From positions 2,356,001-2,420,000 of the forward strand of contig NZ_CP034550.1 of assembly GCF_009498035.1 (NCBI RefSeq): 64,000 nucleotides of DNA, in the 5' to 3' direction. The position numbers and the translations under genes were made by a program. How positions within the stretch are numbered: the first letter of the stretch is position 1; each line of letters starts with the position of its first letter. The stretch comes from Saccharothrix syringae (GTDB lineage: Bacteria > Actinomycetota > Actinomycetes > Mycobacteriales > Pseudonocardiaceae). This document shows positions 1,190 through 63,689 of the stretch, piece after piece. Below the pieces are notes generated by a model that saw only the letters and a program-made list of their open reading frames with translations, had not been told where the DNA came from and ran no database searches.

Positions 1190-1201
1190 CCCCACCCCCG
1201 C

Positions 1202-1438
1202 GCGTGTCCTCCACCCAGACACCGCGTGTCCTCCACTCAGACCGCGCGAGTCGAACCTCCAGACCCGTCGTGTCGAACCTCCGCGACCCCCGAGTTCCAC
1301 ATTCACGCACCTCAGGCGTTCGACCCGGGGGGCGCGAACGTAGAACTCGGGGGTCCTGAGCGTTCGACACGAGGGTCCTGGAGGGTCGACTCGCGGTGTT
1401 CGAGTGGAGGACACGCGGTGTCCGAGTGGAGGACACGC
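1202..1438. repeat. Inverted array of 22-bp units (5 units, 17-bp loop, 5 units)
   Basis: Five contiguous 22-bp units face right (starts 1202, 1224, 1246, 1268, 1290). A 17-bp centre (1312-1328) follows, then five 22-bp units facing left (1329-1438). The unit plan is GYGWGTC + variable triplet + CGTTC-like + tail. Triplets from the left end are CTC, CTC, GAA, GAA, CCA; read from the right end on the other strand they are CTC, CTC, GAC, GAA, CTA. The two 110-bp arms therefore mirror each other, and I count 91 of 110 positions complementary. A transcript could fold into one very long hairpin. The unit is shared with the array at 15813-16142. Several reading frames stay open through the array, but 22 is not a multiple of 3 and no protein family is recognisable. 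Confidence 0.9.
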
Positions 1439-1509
1439 GGGGTTAGCGGGGGGTGGGGGGTGCCGCCCGGACGGCGGATGGTCGGGGTTGGGCCGTCCGG
1501 GGACGCTTC

Positions 1510-12894: not shown

Positions 12895-13010
12895 CAGCCC
12901 TCGTTCGACTGTTCGCAGTCCTCGTTCGACTGGTCAGCCCTCGTTCGGCCGGTCAGCCGTCGTTCGACCAGTCAGCCCTCGTTCGACCAGTCAGCCCTCG
13001 TTCGACCGGC
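12895..13010. repeat. Tandem 19-bp repeat upstream of rel
   Basis: Six consecutive units of the form CAGYCCTCGTTCGACYRGT start at 12895, 12916, 12935, 12954, 12973 and 12992. The first unit is 21 bp and the rest 19 bp; the last two differ only at their ends. They fill much of the 584-bp gap between apt and rel. No open gene or tRNA is visible in this gap. The repeats could be a protein-binding array in the rel leader or selfish simple repeats. Confidence 0.85.
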
Positions 13011-13246: not shown

Positions 13247-15550
13247 TTGAGCCAGGACATCGAATCCGCCGCCCAGTCGACGCCACCCGTGCCCGCGCGG
13301 CCCGCGTCGGCCACCCGGCGCGTCCGCGCGCGATTGGCCCGGCGCATCACCGCCCAGCGGGCCGCGCCGGTCAAGCAGGTGCTCGAACCGCTCGCGGCGG
13401 TGCACCGGGACCTGCACCCGAAGGCCGACCTGGCGCTGTTGCAGCACGCCTACGACGTGGCGGAGGAGAAGCACCGGCCGCAGCGGCGGAAGTCCGGCGA
13501 CCCCTACATCACCCACCCGCTGGCCGTGGCCACGATCCTCGCCGAGCTGGGCATGGACACGACCACGCTGGTCGCCGCCCTGCTCCACGACACGGTGGAG
13601 GACACCGACTACTCGCTGGACCAGCTGCGCCAGGACTTCGGCAACGAGGTCGCGCTGCTGGTGGACGGCGTCACCAAGCTCGACAAGGTCAAGCTCGGGG
13701 CGGCGGCCGAGGCCGAGACCATCCGCAAGATGGTCATCGCCATGGCCAAGGACCCGCGCGTGCTGGTCATCAAGCTCGCGGACCGCCTGCACAACATGCG
13801 CACCATGCGCTTCCTGCCGCCGGAGAAGCAGGCCCGCAAGGCGCGGGAGACGCTGGAGGTGCTGGCACCGCTGGCGCACCGGCTGGGCATGGCGACGGTG
13901 AAGTGGGAGCTGGAGGACCTGGCGTTCGCCATCCTCCAGCCGAAGAAGTACGACGAGATCGTGCGGCTGGTCGCGAACCGGGCGCCGTCCCGGGACACCT
14001 ACCTGAGCGGTGTGATCAACGAGCTGTCGCAGCAGTTGGAGGGCGCGCGGATCACCGCCAAGGTGGAGGGGCGGCCGAAGCACTACTACTCGATCCACCA
14101 GAAGATGATCGTGCGCGGTCGGGACTTCGACGACATCCACGACCTGGTGGGCGTGCGCATCCAGGTGGACGAGGTCCGCGACTGCTACGCGGCGATGGGC
14201 GTCGTGCACGCGTTGTGGCAGCCGATGCCCGGGCGGTTCAAGGACTACATCGCGCAGCCCCGGTTCGGCGTGTACCAGTCGTTGCACACGACCGTCATCG
14301 GGCCGGACGGGAAGCCGCTGGAGGTGCAGATCCGCACCTACGACATGCACCGGACGGCCGAGTACGGCATCGCGGCGCACTGGCGGTACAAGGAGACGCG
14401 GGGCACGCACAGCGGCAAGGCCGTCGAGGTCGACGAGATGGCCTGGATGCGGCAGCTGCTGGACTGGCAGCGGGAGGCCGCCGACCCCGGTGAGTTCCTG
14501 GAGTCGCTGCGGTTCGACCTGGCGGCCCGGGAGATCTTCGTGTTCACCCCGAAGGGTGACGTGGTCACGTTGCCGACCGGGTCCACGCCGGTGGACTTCG
14601 CTTACGCGGTGCACACGGAGGTCGGGCACCGGTGCATCGGGGCCCGGGTGAACGGGCGGCTCGTGGCGTTGGAGCGCAAGCTGGAGAACGGTGAGGTCGT
14701 CGAGATCTTCACCTCCAAGGCCGAGGGGGCCGGGCCTTCCCGGGACTGGCTTTCCTTCGCCGCTTCGCCGCGGGCCAAGGCGAAGATCAAGCAGTGGTTC
14801 GCGAAGGAGCGCAAGGAAGAGGCCATCGAGGTCGGCAAGGACGCGATCGCGAAGGAGGTCCGGCGGGTCGGGCTTCCCCTGCAGCGGTTGGTGTCGGCGG
14901 ATTCGATGGGTGCTTTGTCCACCGAGCTGCACTACCCCGACGTGTCCGCGTTGTACGCGGCGGTGGGGGAGGGGCACACGTCGGCTCGGCACGTGGTCCA
15001 GCGGTTGGTCGCCCAGTTGGGCGGGGTGGAGCACGCTGAGGACGAGCTGGCGGAGCGGTCCACGCCGTCCACGGTGGCCCGTCGGCGGGTCACCGGGGAT
15101 GCCGGGGTCATCGTCAAGGATGCCGCCGATGTGTGGGTGAAGCTGGCTCGGTGCTGCACGCCTGTGCCCGGGGATGACATCCTGGGGTTCGTCACCCGGG
15201 GTGGTGGGGTTTCGGTGCACCGGACCGACTGCACCAATGCCGATGAGTTGTTGAAGACGCCCGAGCGGTTGTTGGATGTCGAGTGGGCGCCTTCTTCGTC
15301 TTCGGTGTTCCTGGTGGCGATCCAGGTCGAGGCTTTGGATCGGCATCGGTTGTTGTCGGATGTGACGAAGGTGTTGGCGGATGAGAAGGTCAACATCCTG
15401 TCGGCTTCGGTGACCACTTCTCGGGATCGGGTGGCGGTGTCCCGGTTCTCCTTCGAGATGGGGGATCCCAAGCATTTGGGGCACGTTTTGAAGGCTGTTC
15501 GGTCGGTGGAGGGGGTTTATGACGTGTACCGGGTGACTTCGGCTTCCTGA
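13247..15550 (+). CDS. rel: Bifunctional (p)ppGpp synthetase/hydrolase Rel
   Basis: 767 aa from TTG 13247, with GAGGAG 6 nt upstream. The domain order is the long RelA/SpoT form. The N-terminal HD hydrolase is intact: [12 protein letters not shown], then [11 protein letters not shown] with the HD pair near residue 114, and [10 protein letters not shown]. The synthetase (about 240-400) has [10 protein letters not shown], '[12 protein letters not shown]' and [17 protein letters not shown] follows ([13 protein letters not shown]), a zinc-finger/helical region ([13 protein letters not shown]) and a C-terminal ACT domain. Both hydrolase and synthetase residues are present, so it should make and destroy the alarmone. 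It is separated from apt by 584 bp and probably has its own promoter. Confidence 0.96.
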
Positions 15551-15637
15551 TTGTTTGGTTCACGGGCTTTCGGTTGGCCGCATCGGGGGTTCACGGGCGG
15601 GCGCTCGCCGCTGGGCAGGCCGCCGGGGGAAAAGCGG

Positions 15638-15760
15638 GCTCGTGCCCTCCCGCATGGCCTGCCGGAGGCAACCACCCTTGTCAAGGGCCCCGCGAAAAGC
15701 GTGCGGGACCCTTGACAAGCGCGGTAGGGCTGCGCCCAGGCCATACGGGAGACCACGAGC
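15638..15760. repeat. Nested inverted repeats downstream of rel
   Basis: Outer arms 15638-15661 and 15737-15760 (24 bp, 21 matching by my count) enclose inner arms 15677-15693 and 15703-15719 (17 bp, 16 matching) around a 9-nt GAAAA-containing loop. The structure lies about 90 bp after the rel stop, in the convergent gap before the cyclophilin gene. It may work as a two-way terminator or be a small mobile palindromic element. It has no protein coding. Confidence 0.8.
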
Positions 15761-15812
15761 AACCCCCCAGTGAACGAACACGCCACTCCCGTACGTGGTC
15801 ACGCTCCCACCG

Positions 15813-16142
15813 GCGTGTCATGCATTGAAGCCGGGCGAGTCATGCGTTTGGGGCGCGCGAGTCATGCGTTGGGGCCGGGCGTGTCATGCGTTCAAGCCGG
15901 GCGTGTCATGCGTTCAGACCGCGCGAGTCGAACGTTCAGGCCCGTCGTGTCGAACGTTCCGGGCCCCCGAGTTCTACGTTCAGGACCGGCGTGTCCTCCG
16001 GTCCGACACCGCGTGTCCTCCAGTCGGACACCGCGTGTCCTCCGGTCGGACACCGCATGTCCTCCACTCGGGCACGGTGAGTCGAACGTTCAGGACCCTC
16101 GTGTCGAACGTTCCGGACCCCTGAGTTCCGCGTTCGGGGTCG
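15813..16142. repeat. Direct array of fifteen 22-bp units
   Basis: Fifteen contiguous units of exactly 22 bp run from 15813 to 16142 without a single indel. GT at unit positions 5-6 is invariant, position 4 is A or T, and positions 11-15 are mostly CGTTC. Positions 8-10 form a 'word': ATG in units 1-5; GAA, GAA, CTA in 6-8; CTC in 9-12; GAA, GAA, CCG in 13-15. Units 6-8 and 13-15 form a 66-bp trimer that also builds both arms of the array at 1202-1438. There is no CRISPR-like repeat/spacer structure. The region is within the 718-bp convergent gap between rel and the cyclophilin gene. Confidence 0.92.
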
Positions 16143-16213
16143 GTGGGGCGGCGTCAGCGAAACGTCAGTGGTGGCTGCGACCATGCGCTGTCGGCTTCGG
16201 CCGACGGGGAAGG

Positions 16214-16250
16214 CGCAGGGCCCGGCACCCACTGGGTGCCGGGCCCTGCG
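16214..16250. terminator. Strong hairpin terminator after cyclophilin gene
   Basis: A perfect 17-bp stem, 16214-16230 with 16234-16250, closes on a 3-nt ACT loop about 20 bp past the cyclophilin stop. No U-tract follows on either strand, as is usual in actinomycetes. It could act in both directions. Confidence 0.85.
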
Positions 16251-16268
16251 TGTGCTCCTGGGGTCTGG

Positions 16269-17132
16269 TCAGGCGACCGTCACGCTCTCGAACTTCACTT
16301 CCTTGTTCGGCTTGCCGCCGCCGGGGGACGGGTCGAACGAGCCGTCGTGGCCGGCTCGGGCCACTTCGTCCACGAGCTTCAGGCCGGCTTCGTCCACGCT
16401 GCCGAAGACCGTGTAGTCCGGGGACAGTTGGGCGTCGCCGTAGACGATGAAGAACTGGCTGCCGTTCGTCCCCTTCTGGGTTTCCTGGTCCAGGCCGGCG
16501 TTCGCCATCGCGAGGTAGCCGCGGCCGTAGGTGAGTTCCGGCCACGTCTCGTTGTCGAACGTGTAGCCGGGGCCGCCGGAGCCGGTGCCGGTCGGGTCGC
16601 CGCACTGCAGCATCTGCAGGCCCTCGGTGCCGATGCGGTGGCACGTGGTGCCGTCGTAGTAGCCCTGCTTGGCCAGGCTGATGAAGCTGTTCACCGTGCA
16701 CGGCGCGAGGGCGCGGTCCAGGGTGAGCTTCAGCTCGCCGATGTTGGCCTTGATGGTGGCCGCCGCGGTGCCGGTGGACGGGATGCCGGTGGCCTCGGGG
16801 GCCTTGGTGCCCTCCTTCGACGCCGGTTCCTTGGACGCCGGGTACTCGCAGTTCACCGGGTTCGCCAACGCCGTCGGGCGGGTCGGCAGGGGCTTGACCT
16901 CGCTGGGGATCGTGATCGGCGCCGCGCTGGTCGTGCTGGCGGCCGCGGCGTCGGTGTTGTCGTCGCCGGGGCGGGTCGCCACGTAGTAGATGACGCCCGC
17001 GGCCACGATCACCGTGCCGAAGACCGAGACGATGGCGACCCAGCGGCGGCGCTTCGCGCGCTCGGCCCTGCGGGCGAGCTGACGTTCCAGCTTCCGCTTC
17101 GCCTGCTCGCGGCGCTGTACGTTGGTCGGCAC
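16269..17132 (-). CDS. Membrane-anchored cyclophilin-type peptidyl-prolyl isomerase
   Basis: 287 aa from GTG 17132 with GGGAGG upstream. A very basic N-terminus (QRREQAKRKLERQLARR) is followed by one membrane helix (about 31-53), an Ala/Thr linker and a C-terminal cyclophilin domain (about 125-287) facing outside. Cyclophilin signatures are 'FISLAKQGYYDGTTCHRI', YLAMANAG, GSQFFIVYGD and 'TVFGSVDEAG'. It probably assists folding of exported proteins. The cyclophilin/MBL/hisS neighbourhood next to rel is conserved in actinobacteria. Confidence 0.92.
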   Translation of the reverse strand: MPTNVQRREQAKRKLERQLARRAERAKRRRWVAIVSVFGTVIVAAGVIYYVATRPGDDNTDAAAASTTSAAPITIPSEVKPLPTRPTALANPVNCEYPASKEPASKEGTKAPEATGIPSTGTAAATIKANIGELKLTLDRALAPCTVNSFISLAKQGYYDGTTCHRIGTEGLQMLQCGDPTGTGSGGPGYTFDNETWPELTYGRGYLAMANAGLDQETQKGTNGSQFFIVYGDAQLSPDYTVFGSVDEAGLKLVDEVARAGHDGSFDPSPGGGKPNKEVKFESVTVA

Positions 17133-62675: not shown

Positions 62676-63689
62676 CACCCGTTCCAGCAGCGCCAGGTCG
62701 GGACCGCCGGGCGCGGCGGCGTTGTCGTGCACCGCCATCACGCCCATGCTGATGAGGTCGCCGATGAGCACCCGCGCCACGCCCAGCGGCACCGCCAGCA
62801 GCGCGGAGACCTCGGCGACCGAGCGCGGGTGGTTCGCGCACATCTCCACGATCGACCGCTGCTCGTGGCTGGAGTCCCGCATGGCGATGGCGATGCCGCT
62901 GTCCTCCAGCGAGACCAGGGTCTCCAGCCTCAGGTCGTGGTGGGAGGACGTGCGGCCGCCCGTCCACGCGTAGGGGCGGACCAGCGGCCCGGAGAACTCC
63001 TCGACGGGCTCCGGCTCCGGCTCCGGCGCGCGGCCGGGCGGGACCACCGGCTGCCCACCGGTGACGGCTTCGGCGAAGGGCGCGGTGTCCTCCAGCTCCG
63101 CTCCGCCCCGCTCCTCCCAGCCTTGCCCCGCCCACCCCTGCCCGGCCTGCCCGCGCTCCGCCCCGGTCTGCCGGGCCCACCCCTGTTCCTCGCGCTCCCA
63201 CCACTCCGCCCGGCTGGCCCGCTCCTCCTCCGCCCGCCGCTCCTCCGCGTCGCGCCAGGACTCCGCGTCGCGCCAGGACTCCGCGTCGCGCCAGGACTCC
63301 GCGTCGCGCCAGGACTCCGCGTCGCGCCGGGCCCCCGCGTCGCGCCAGGACTCCGCGTCGCGCCGGGCCCCCGCGTCAGGTAGGGCCTGCGCCTCCGGCC
63401 CGTTCTCCGGGCCGTGCCCGCCCCCCGCTTCGCCCCGCTCCTCTTCCCGCTCCAAGCTCCGGCGCAGGGCGGCCGAACCGAACCGGGCGCCCGTCGTGCC
63501 CACCTCGCCGCGCAGCGACCGCCGCCGCCGGGGCGGCTTGGGCTGCTCGACCGACCTCTCCTCTAAGCTCCGGCGCAGCGCGGGCGAGCCGAACCGGGCA
63601 CCGGTCGTGCCCACCTCACCGCGCAACGACCGACGGCGTCTTCGCTCACCACCGCCGGCGGGATCCGGGTCCGAGCTGGCTGTGCTCAC
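62652..63689 (-). CDS. DUF742 protein with repeat-rich N-terminal extension
   Basis: 345 aa from GTG 63689; an upstream ATG at 63752 is open but third-position GC is low there. The C-terminal about 120 residues are DUF742 ('[20 protein letters not shown]', '[20 protein letters not shown]'), the CvnC component that accompanies Roadblock/small-GTPase/kinase conservons; none of those partners is adjacent. The N-terminus holds two copies of a 26-residue module ([16 protein letters not shown]) and tandem six-residue DAESWR units. It then becomes Glu/Gly/Trp-rich and is probably disordered. Confidence 0.8.
63247..63372 (-). repeat. 18-bp coding tandem repeat ([12 protein letters not shown] units)
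   Basis: Seven 18-bp units starting at 63247 share GCGTCGCGCC. Five end AGGACTCC (DAESWR) and two end GGGCCCCC (DAGARR). Because 18 is a multiple of 3, the copy number can change without breaking the DUF742 frame. Confidence 0.9.

What the first reader, a model, noticed from the sequence alone, without database searches (positions are those of the whole stretch)
15813..16142. Fifteen-unit direct 22-bp array with a word-like variable triplet
330 bp with no indel although units differ at many positions. Variation concentrates in the triplet at positions 8-10 (ATG, GAA, CTA, CTC, CCG) and in the tail, while GT at 5-6 is invariant and CGTTC nearly so. Strict phase with diversified content suggests selection on spacing (two helical turns) or a copying mechanism, rather than simple slippage.
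Basis: seen in the sequence. Interest (0 to 1): 0.78.

Follow-up and report, generated by a model that had tools for sequence, protein, structure and literature searches.

The report
Phased 22-bp arrays at gene ends
The 15-unit array is real and belongs to a family of strictly spaced 22-bp repeats found mostly near the ends of genes in this soil bacterium and some relatives; each unit keeps a short core, so an unknown protein probably reads it.

Summary
Confirmed: fifteen 22-bp units at 15812-16141, no indel, between convergent relA and cyclophilin genes. It is one of 99 arrays (590 units) in 0.79 Mb examined of this genome (probably Saccharothrix). Each unit keeps a 9-bp core, GWGTYNNNC, while positions 13-22 vary. 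All 565 strong units are in phase; 1927 substitutions, no phase break. The "word-like" triplets are labels of a few unit classes, not free variation; relatives use other words in the same frame. Many arrays, often head-to-head, abut stop codons; few lie between divergent genes. This copy is the 3' tail of a composite: a structured hairpin body plus the array. The array is absent beside relA in 24 of 24 genus relatives (a diverged body stands there in 3). RNA pairing is not what is conserved: this array does not fold, and arms of inverted pairs match in class, hardly in tails. The REP transposase RAYT was not found. Best reading: a REP/BIME-like 3'-end element whose unit is a recognition site held at about two helical turns, read by an unidentified protein. 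Its position is that of known REPs; phased direct arrays, fixed core, genome-specific words and missing RAYT differ.

The parts
15812..16141 (+). 15-unit phased array: 5 ATG-class units (15812-15921), AGTCGAA / TGTCGAA / AGTTCTA block (15922-15987), 4 CTC-class units (15988-16075), second AGTCGAA / TGTCGAA / AGTTCC block (16076-16141)
15588..15811 (+). Body I of the composite (structured core about 15597-15762) plus spacer of about 50 nt leading into the array; six near-identical copies in this genome (97-100% identity), each followed directly by an array
   Evidence: 19 of 50 predicted pairs with changes on both sides
13289..15550 (+). relA/spoT-type gene upstream (HD, RelA_SpoT, TGS, ACT); its stop is 261 bp before the array
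16269..17132 (-). Cyclophilin-type peptidyl-prolyl isomerase gene, convergent with relA
16214..16250 (.). Terminator-like hairpin after the isomerase gene; similar hairpins seen by eye in orthologous regions without the array
   Evidence: read by eye, not scanned
1201..1310 (+). Left arm (5 units) of an inverted pair of arrays, starting 11 nt after the stop of the DUF427 gene
1330..1439 (-). Right arm (5 units) of that pair; the pair folds to -201 kcal/mol, z -19.67

Best explanation
The array is one copy of a dispersed, REP/BIME-like family of gene 3'-end elements. The working part is a 9-bp core (GWGTYNNNC) repeated every 22 bp, about two helical turns, so that one sequence-specific DNA-binding protein can occupy all units on one face of the helix. 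Shown: the family, its strict phase, the conserved core with a free tail, the bias to gene 3' ends, presence/absence between species at two loci, the failure to find RAYT in this genome, and the body-plus-array layout of this copy. Inferred: that a protein reads the core; that the same protein or a partner enzyme spreads the arrays; and that the resulting nucleoprotein array marks or closes the end of transcription units in either orientation, with paired arrays also able to snap back as hairpins. At this locus the array was gained between relA and the isomerase gene in this lineage.
For: Core fixed, tail free: in G000 G4 588/590, G6 585/590, T7 582/590, C12 589/590, while tail positions depart from the class consensus at rates up to 0.64; repeated in 632 units of relatives (G4 628, G6 613, T7 627, C12 609). 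Phase: 565/565, 0 same-strand phase breaks, 1927 substitutions. Gene context: 31 convergent, 31 tandem, 1 divergent, 3 undetermined of 66 clusters, against 65/204/68 background gene pairs (chi2 p 1.4e-7); in relatives 52/27/3 and 1 undetermined of 83 clusters. Arms whose unit 5' end faces a gene start 2-16 nt after the stop in 25 of 46 cases in G000, and at -5 to +11 nt in 65 of 87 in relatives; for arms facing with the 3' end, the stop lies inside the array in 15 of 49 and 12 of 44 cases. Orientation towards genes is mixed (49 against 46 in G000), which favours DNA-level action. Loci are polymorphic: no array within 1.5 kb after relA in 24 of 24 relatives or after the DUF427 gene in 16 of 16. 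Words differ by genome in one frame.
Against: No binding protein or dispersal enzyme was identified. Two turns of B-DNA are nearer 21 than 22 bp. Core conservation could serve a transposition enzyme only, without benefit to the host. Stop abutment is far from universal: 13 of 49 and 17 of 46 gene ends in G000, 19 of 44 and 9 of 87 in relatives, are more than 50 nt from the array. The copy studied lies 261 and 127 bp from its neighbours, beside a terminator-like hairpin, so a termination role here would be redundant. Position at gene ends could be tolerance rather than function. Relatives' arrays were found with a query and PWM made from G000, which favours similar units; six same-strand neighbours, some of them phase breaks, do occur there.
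Confidence: 0.5

Rival explanations
1. Purely selfish REP-like elements: the core is the recognition site of an unknown transposase or nuclease that copies arrays into gene 3' ends, and the host gains nothing.
For: Arrays absent at the two loci tested in relatives, patchy distribution (7 of 150 family genomes with 20 or more GWGTYSWACGTTC matches; 15 of 24 genus relatives with array matches), REP-like placement (PMC3733652 section 15).
Against: No enzyme found; RAYT family PF01797 has no match in G000 and matches in 5 of 25 genus genomes, 4 of them array-bearing, so it is neither general nor excluded in those four; strict phase over up to 15 direct units is not needed for a simple end-recognition site; no match of this array in the plasmid or phage collections.
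Confidence: 0.3
2. RNA hairpin elements: paired arrays are bidirectional transcription terminators or mRNA 3'-end stabilisers, and pairing is what selection keeps.
For: The inverted pair at 1195-1445 folds with z -19.67; stop abutment and convergent bias; arms of one pair are more alike than arms of different pairs, 0.796 against 0.736 over 32 pairs, 0 of 10000 permutations.
Against: The array in question does not fold better than shuffles on either strand (z -0.54, -0.64). With unit class matched, tails within a pair are hardly more alike than between pairs: 0.653 against 0.640 in G000 (292 of 2000 shuffles reach it); 0.698 against 0.679 in relatives (58 of 2000, a weak signal in favour). 36 of 66 clusters are single arrays without an inverted partner.
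Confidence: 0.14
3. Ordinary satellite: replication slippage and unequal recombination made the arrays, and they drift.
For: Units vary in number between copies and blocks are re-ordered.
Against: No phase break in G000 against 1927 substitutions and conservation limited to half of each unit, repeated in other genomes; drift alone would not do that.
Confidence: 0.05

Closest known systems
REP / REPIN / BIME elements (GTAG- and CGTC-tagged REPs; PMC3733652, PMC3116915)
   Same: Dispersed, high copy, extragenic; convergent copies under 20 bp from both 3' ends, tandem copies near the upstream 3' end; ends can supply a TAG stop; inverted doublets forming hairpins.
   Different: Up to 15 direct units in fixed 22-bp phase; fixed core with free tail; words differ between genomes; no RAYT match in this genome. 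The word Actinobacteria has 0 occurrences in the main text of PMC3733652.
Mycobacterial interspersed repetitive units (MIRU), recalled, not read
   Same: Actinobacterial intergenic tandem repeats said to overlap stop codons.
   Different: Longer units, tandem only, no fixed core in two-turn phase as far as recalled; not compared here.
TAACTGA direct-repeat arrays of Beggiatoaceae, Cyanobacteria and Bacteroidetes (PMC4679880, abstract and passages)
   Same: Intergenic direct-repeat arrays in many copies, patchy distribution, unknown binding protein.
   Different: Heptamer units, in BOGUAY mostly just upstream of start codons in forward orientation; here 22-bp units near stop codons in both orientations.

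Membership tests
REPIN/RAYT system | RAYT (Y1 transposase, PF01797) in the genome | tested here: not met
   0 in G000; 5 of 25 genus genomes over the cut-off; 5 of 14 control genomes ring. A RAYT too diverged for PF01797 is not excluded
REPIN/RAYT system | Extragenic position at 3' ends, convergent and tandem | tested here: met
REPIN/RAYT system | Short imperfectly palindromic unit tagged GTAG or CGTC at one end | tested here: inconclusive
   Read by eye from the consensus classes: most are not palindromic over the unit, but CTC-class units can pair GTGTCC with GGACAC, and the last-unit class read in reverse contains GTAG
REPIN/RAYT system | Inverted doublets forming hairpins | tested here: inconclusive
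   Met for paired arrays (33 adjacent pairs; one folded), not for this array
Intrinsic terminator | Stable hairpin in the transcript | tested here: not met
   z -0.54 and -0.64 for this array; met for the pair at 1195-1445
CRISPR array | Identical repeats separated by unique spacers | tested here: not met
   Head-to-tail 22-bp units, no spacers; cas genes not searched
Known structured RNA family (Rfam 15) | Match at the gathering score | tested here: not met
   0 matches in the window; for 15540-16280 only matches below gathering, the best Atu_L6 at 16159-16261, E 2.2e-05, 32.6 bits against 100, outside the array
Protein-coding repeat | Coding potential or protein family match | tested here: not met
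   No gene called; no Pfam match for two ORFs
MIRU | Sequence and layout of the mycobacterial family | not tested
   Recalled only

The most novel reading that the evidence does not exclude
A new kind of chromosomal address system: genome-specific 9-bp words in one fixed frame, laid out every two helical turns near the 3' ends of genes and mostly in the origin-proximal half of the chromosome, read by an undiscovered protein whose specificity changes together with the word, and spread without RAYT. The composite with a structured body would be its mobile form.
Probability: 0.3. Interest if true: 0.8.

Novelty: new variant of a known kind. Interest (0 to 1): 0.6.

Why it matters
REP-like elements are common bacterial repeats, yet their function and, outside RAYT genomes, their spread are unsettled. 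Here there are many units with a fixed core and free tail, several words across species, and present/absent copies at otherwise conserved loci: good material to find the reading protein and to test whether such arrays end transcription, shape the chromosome or only spread.

Tried and rejected
Coding repeat: rejected. CRISPR-like array: rejected on layout. RNA hairpin as the conserved property: rejected for this array, weak for pairs. RAYT-driven REPIN: not supported for this genome. Plasmid or phage carriage: no match in either collection. A tRNA T-arm or LexA-like reading of the GAA class was considered from memory and dropped because the other classes do not fit. Literature: ten paper runs, nine answered; no title listed describes these arrays, but three lists were cut (15 of 22 shown; 10 of 1,396; 10 of 65), and only three papers were opened.

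Unresolved: the six type I bodies are 98.5% identical on average while their arrays are 85.4% identical (type II, 12 copies: 95.3% and 89.5%), although diverged body I homologues without array also lie after relA in 3 of 24 relatives (G011, G016, G023; 70-77% identity; four further relatives, G001, G003, G018 and G021, gave only 18-28 nt matches). Recent spread of bodies with tails exchanged between arrays would fit; not tested.

Full report
What is there. The window is G000:C1:2356001-2420000 of a one-contig, 10,929,570-base genome. The array occupies 15812-16141 between a relA/spoT-type gene and a convergent cyclophilin gene.

Family in the genome. BLAST of the array against its own genome gave 56 matches, with 40 of 212 candidates scored. 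In 78 merged segments (789,450 bases; about half of the bases are 20 stretches sampled at roughly 0.5-Mb steps, the rest the window and stretches fetched because they hold matches) a PWM found 99 arrays with 590 units, and its control on reversed sequence 0. Units fall into ATG, AGTCGAA, TGTCGAA, TTC and CTC classes; 66 of 99 arrays contain the block AGTCGAA-TGTCGAA-TTC, 78 of 99 if the W base is ignored. Of 66 clusters 36 are single arrays and 30 hold two or more; there are 33 adjacent opposite-strand pairs.

What is conserved. Positions 4-12 (GWGTYNNNC) are almost fixed and positions 13-22 vary; the triplet positions are fixed within a class by definition. The same holds in 632 units from relatives. 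All 565 strong units within arrays and 70 bp around them are in phase, with no same-strand neighbour within 120 bp and 1927 substitutions against class consensus. In relatives six same-strand neighbours appear, at gaps of -2, 2, 23, -2, 22 and 64, some of which are phase breaks. Gaps between arms of +/- pairs: 58 junctions, R 0.71 at period 11; in this full set the control periods 9, 13 and 16 are significant too, because 23 of the 58 gaps are 8 or 9 bp. For the 19 gaps of 13 bp or more p is 0.0009 at period 11, 0.003 at 10.5, 0.20 at 22, and 0.012, 0.06 and 0.20 at the control periods 13, 8 and 9. Common descent of junctions makes these p-values too small; this is suggestive only.

Where the arrays sit. 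Of 66 clusters 31 lie between convergent and 31 between tandem genes, 1 between divergent genes, 3 undetermined; background gene pairs 65, 204 and 68 (p 1.4e-7). In relatives, of 88 loci given, 5 (L117-L121) had no array by the PWM and the other 83 gave one cluster each: 52, 27, 3 and 1 undetermined (p 5e-15). Among 23 tandem clusters without body, the mean share of the free distance lying on the upstream-stop side is 0.14 (Wilcoxon p 0.0004; overlaps set to 0); 0.22 in 27 from relatives (p 0.0001). Stop distances, misses included, are: within -15 to +16 nt are 26 of 49 and 25 of 46 gene ends in G000, 21 of 44 and 65 of 87 in relatives (unit 3' end and 5' end facing the gene). Gene calls are from a home-made codon-usage caller, not an annotation.

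Chromosome position. dnaA is at 78-1697. Of 46 places more than 2 kb apart from the whole-genome pattern search (72 matches), 41 lie in the half nearest dnaA and 5 in the other (KS p 4e-7). For seven other genomes I entered 47 places from the capped list, out of 89 matches there; some are neighbours; mean relative distance 0.34 (KS p 2e-5), taking the chromosomes as circular. Conserved genes are also origin-proximal in such genomes (recalled), so this may be indirect.

This copy. It is the tail of a composite: body I (15 matches: 6 full near-identical copies, 1 diverged, 6 reverse-strand matches of the same palindromes, 2 short) or body II (13 copies, 12 of them followed by an array, and for the one without). 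Beside the diverged body I copy at 2491564 the array lies on the 5' side instead. Body I alone is a conserved structured element: in 14 sequences from 9 genomes, 19 of 50 predicted pairs show changes on both sides with the pair kept. In other genomes bodies mostly stand alone: of 44 loci examined (two of them the same place) 3 had an array, on the 5' side.

The locus in relatives. In 11 of 13 named loci where relA was also matched, homology ends near the relA stop and resumes at 16141 or later, except that Saccharothrix tamanrassetensis (L134) has a 73% match to the body at 15629-15758. Of 80 named isomerase loci one (L136) holds a 3-unit array, about 3 kb from the isomerase gene. In 24 of 24 genus genomes no array lies within 1.5 kb after relA; the isomerase gene was located in 19 of these 24. 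The inverted pair at 1201-1439 is absent in 16 of 16 other genomes with the DUF427 gene, UDG being found next in 15.

Spread among species. By DNA query 22 of 80 genomes (own included) match; in the genus 15 of 24 relatives. By the pattern GWGTYSWACGTTC, 7 of 150 family genomes have 20 or more matches (G000 137, G020 364, G022 77, G007 82, G045 20, G086 176, G198 77); the rest have 11 or fewer and controls at most 2; only seven genus members were among these 150. Several genomes favour one word: in the capped list, the rows of G198 all read GAGTCCAAC and those of G086 all but one GAGTCGTAC.

Against RNA pairing as the function: as given above. Against RAYT: no match in G000, but matches in 4 of the 15 array-bearing relatives and in 1 without array matches. 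Literature: PMC3733652 (passages and section 15) describes the same positional habit for REPs, including TAG stops supplied by the repeat; PMC3116915 (passages) describes REPINs; PMC4679880 (abstract and passages) describes another intergenic direct-repeat family. MIRU is from memory. Nothing on these arrays was seen in the nine answered literature searches, some with cut lists.

Verdict. A real, unusual dispersed family. As a positional class it is REP-like; the phased direct arrays with a conserved core, genome-specific words and no RAYT match make it a new variant. The reading protein, the dispersal enzyme and the host function remain inferred or open.

Noticed in passing
15588-15762 (body I), with homologues at L244-L252 and L262-L270: Dispersed structured hairpin element with strong compensatory changes and an inner stem that differs between copies; no Rfam match at gathering score; a candidate new structured element family in its own right.
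   Followed up: partly
L043:1320-1499; homologues L273-L283 and L285-L299 (body II): Second dispersed palindromic element with ends CGATTTGACATGGG / CCCATGTCAAATCG; up to 60 matches in one relative, where both strands of one palindrome may count.
   Followed up: partly
15588-16141: Bodies nearly identical while the attached arrays differ by about 15%; diverged body I homologues also lie after relA in 3 of 24 relatives. Not explained.
   Followed up: partly
-/+ array junctions in G000: The central loop of several junctions (as GGTGGGAGCGCTCCCACC) resembles, in its right half, the end of the body I spacer, as if the body had replaced the left arm of an inverted pair.
   Followed up: no
12895-13009: Six-copy 19-bp tandem repeat (TRF), of another unit than the 22-bp family.
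   Followed up: no
63243-63428: 18/54-bp tandem repeat (TRF).
   Followed up: no
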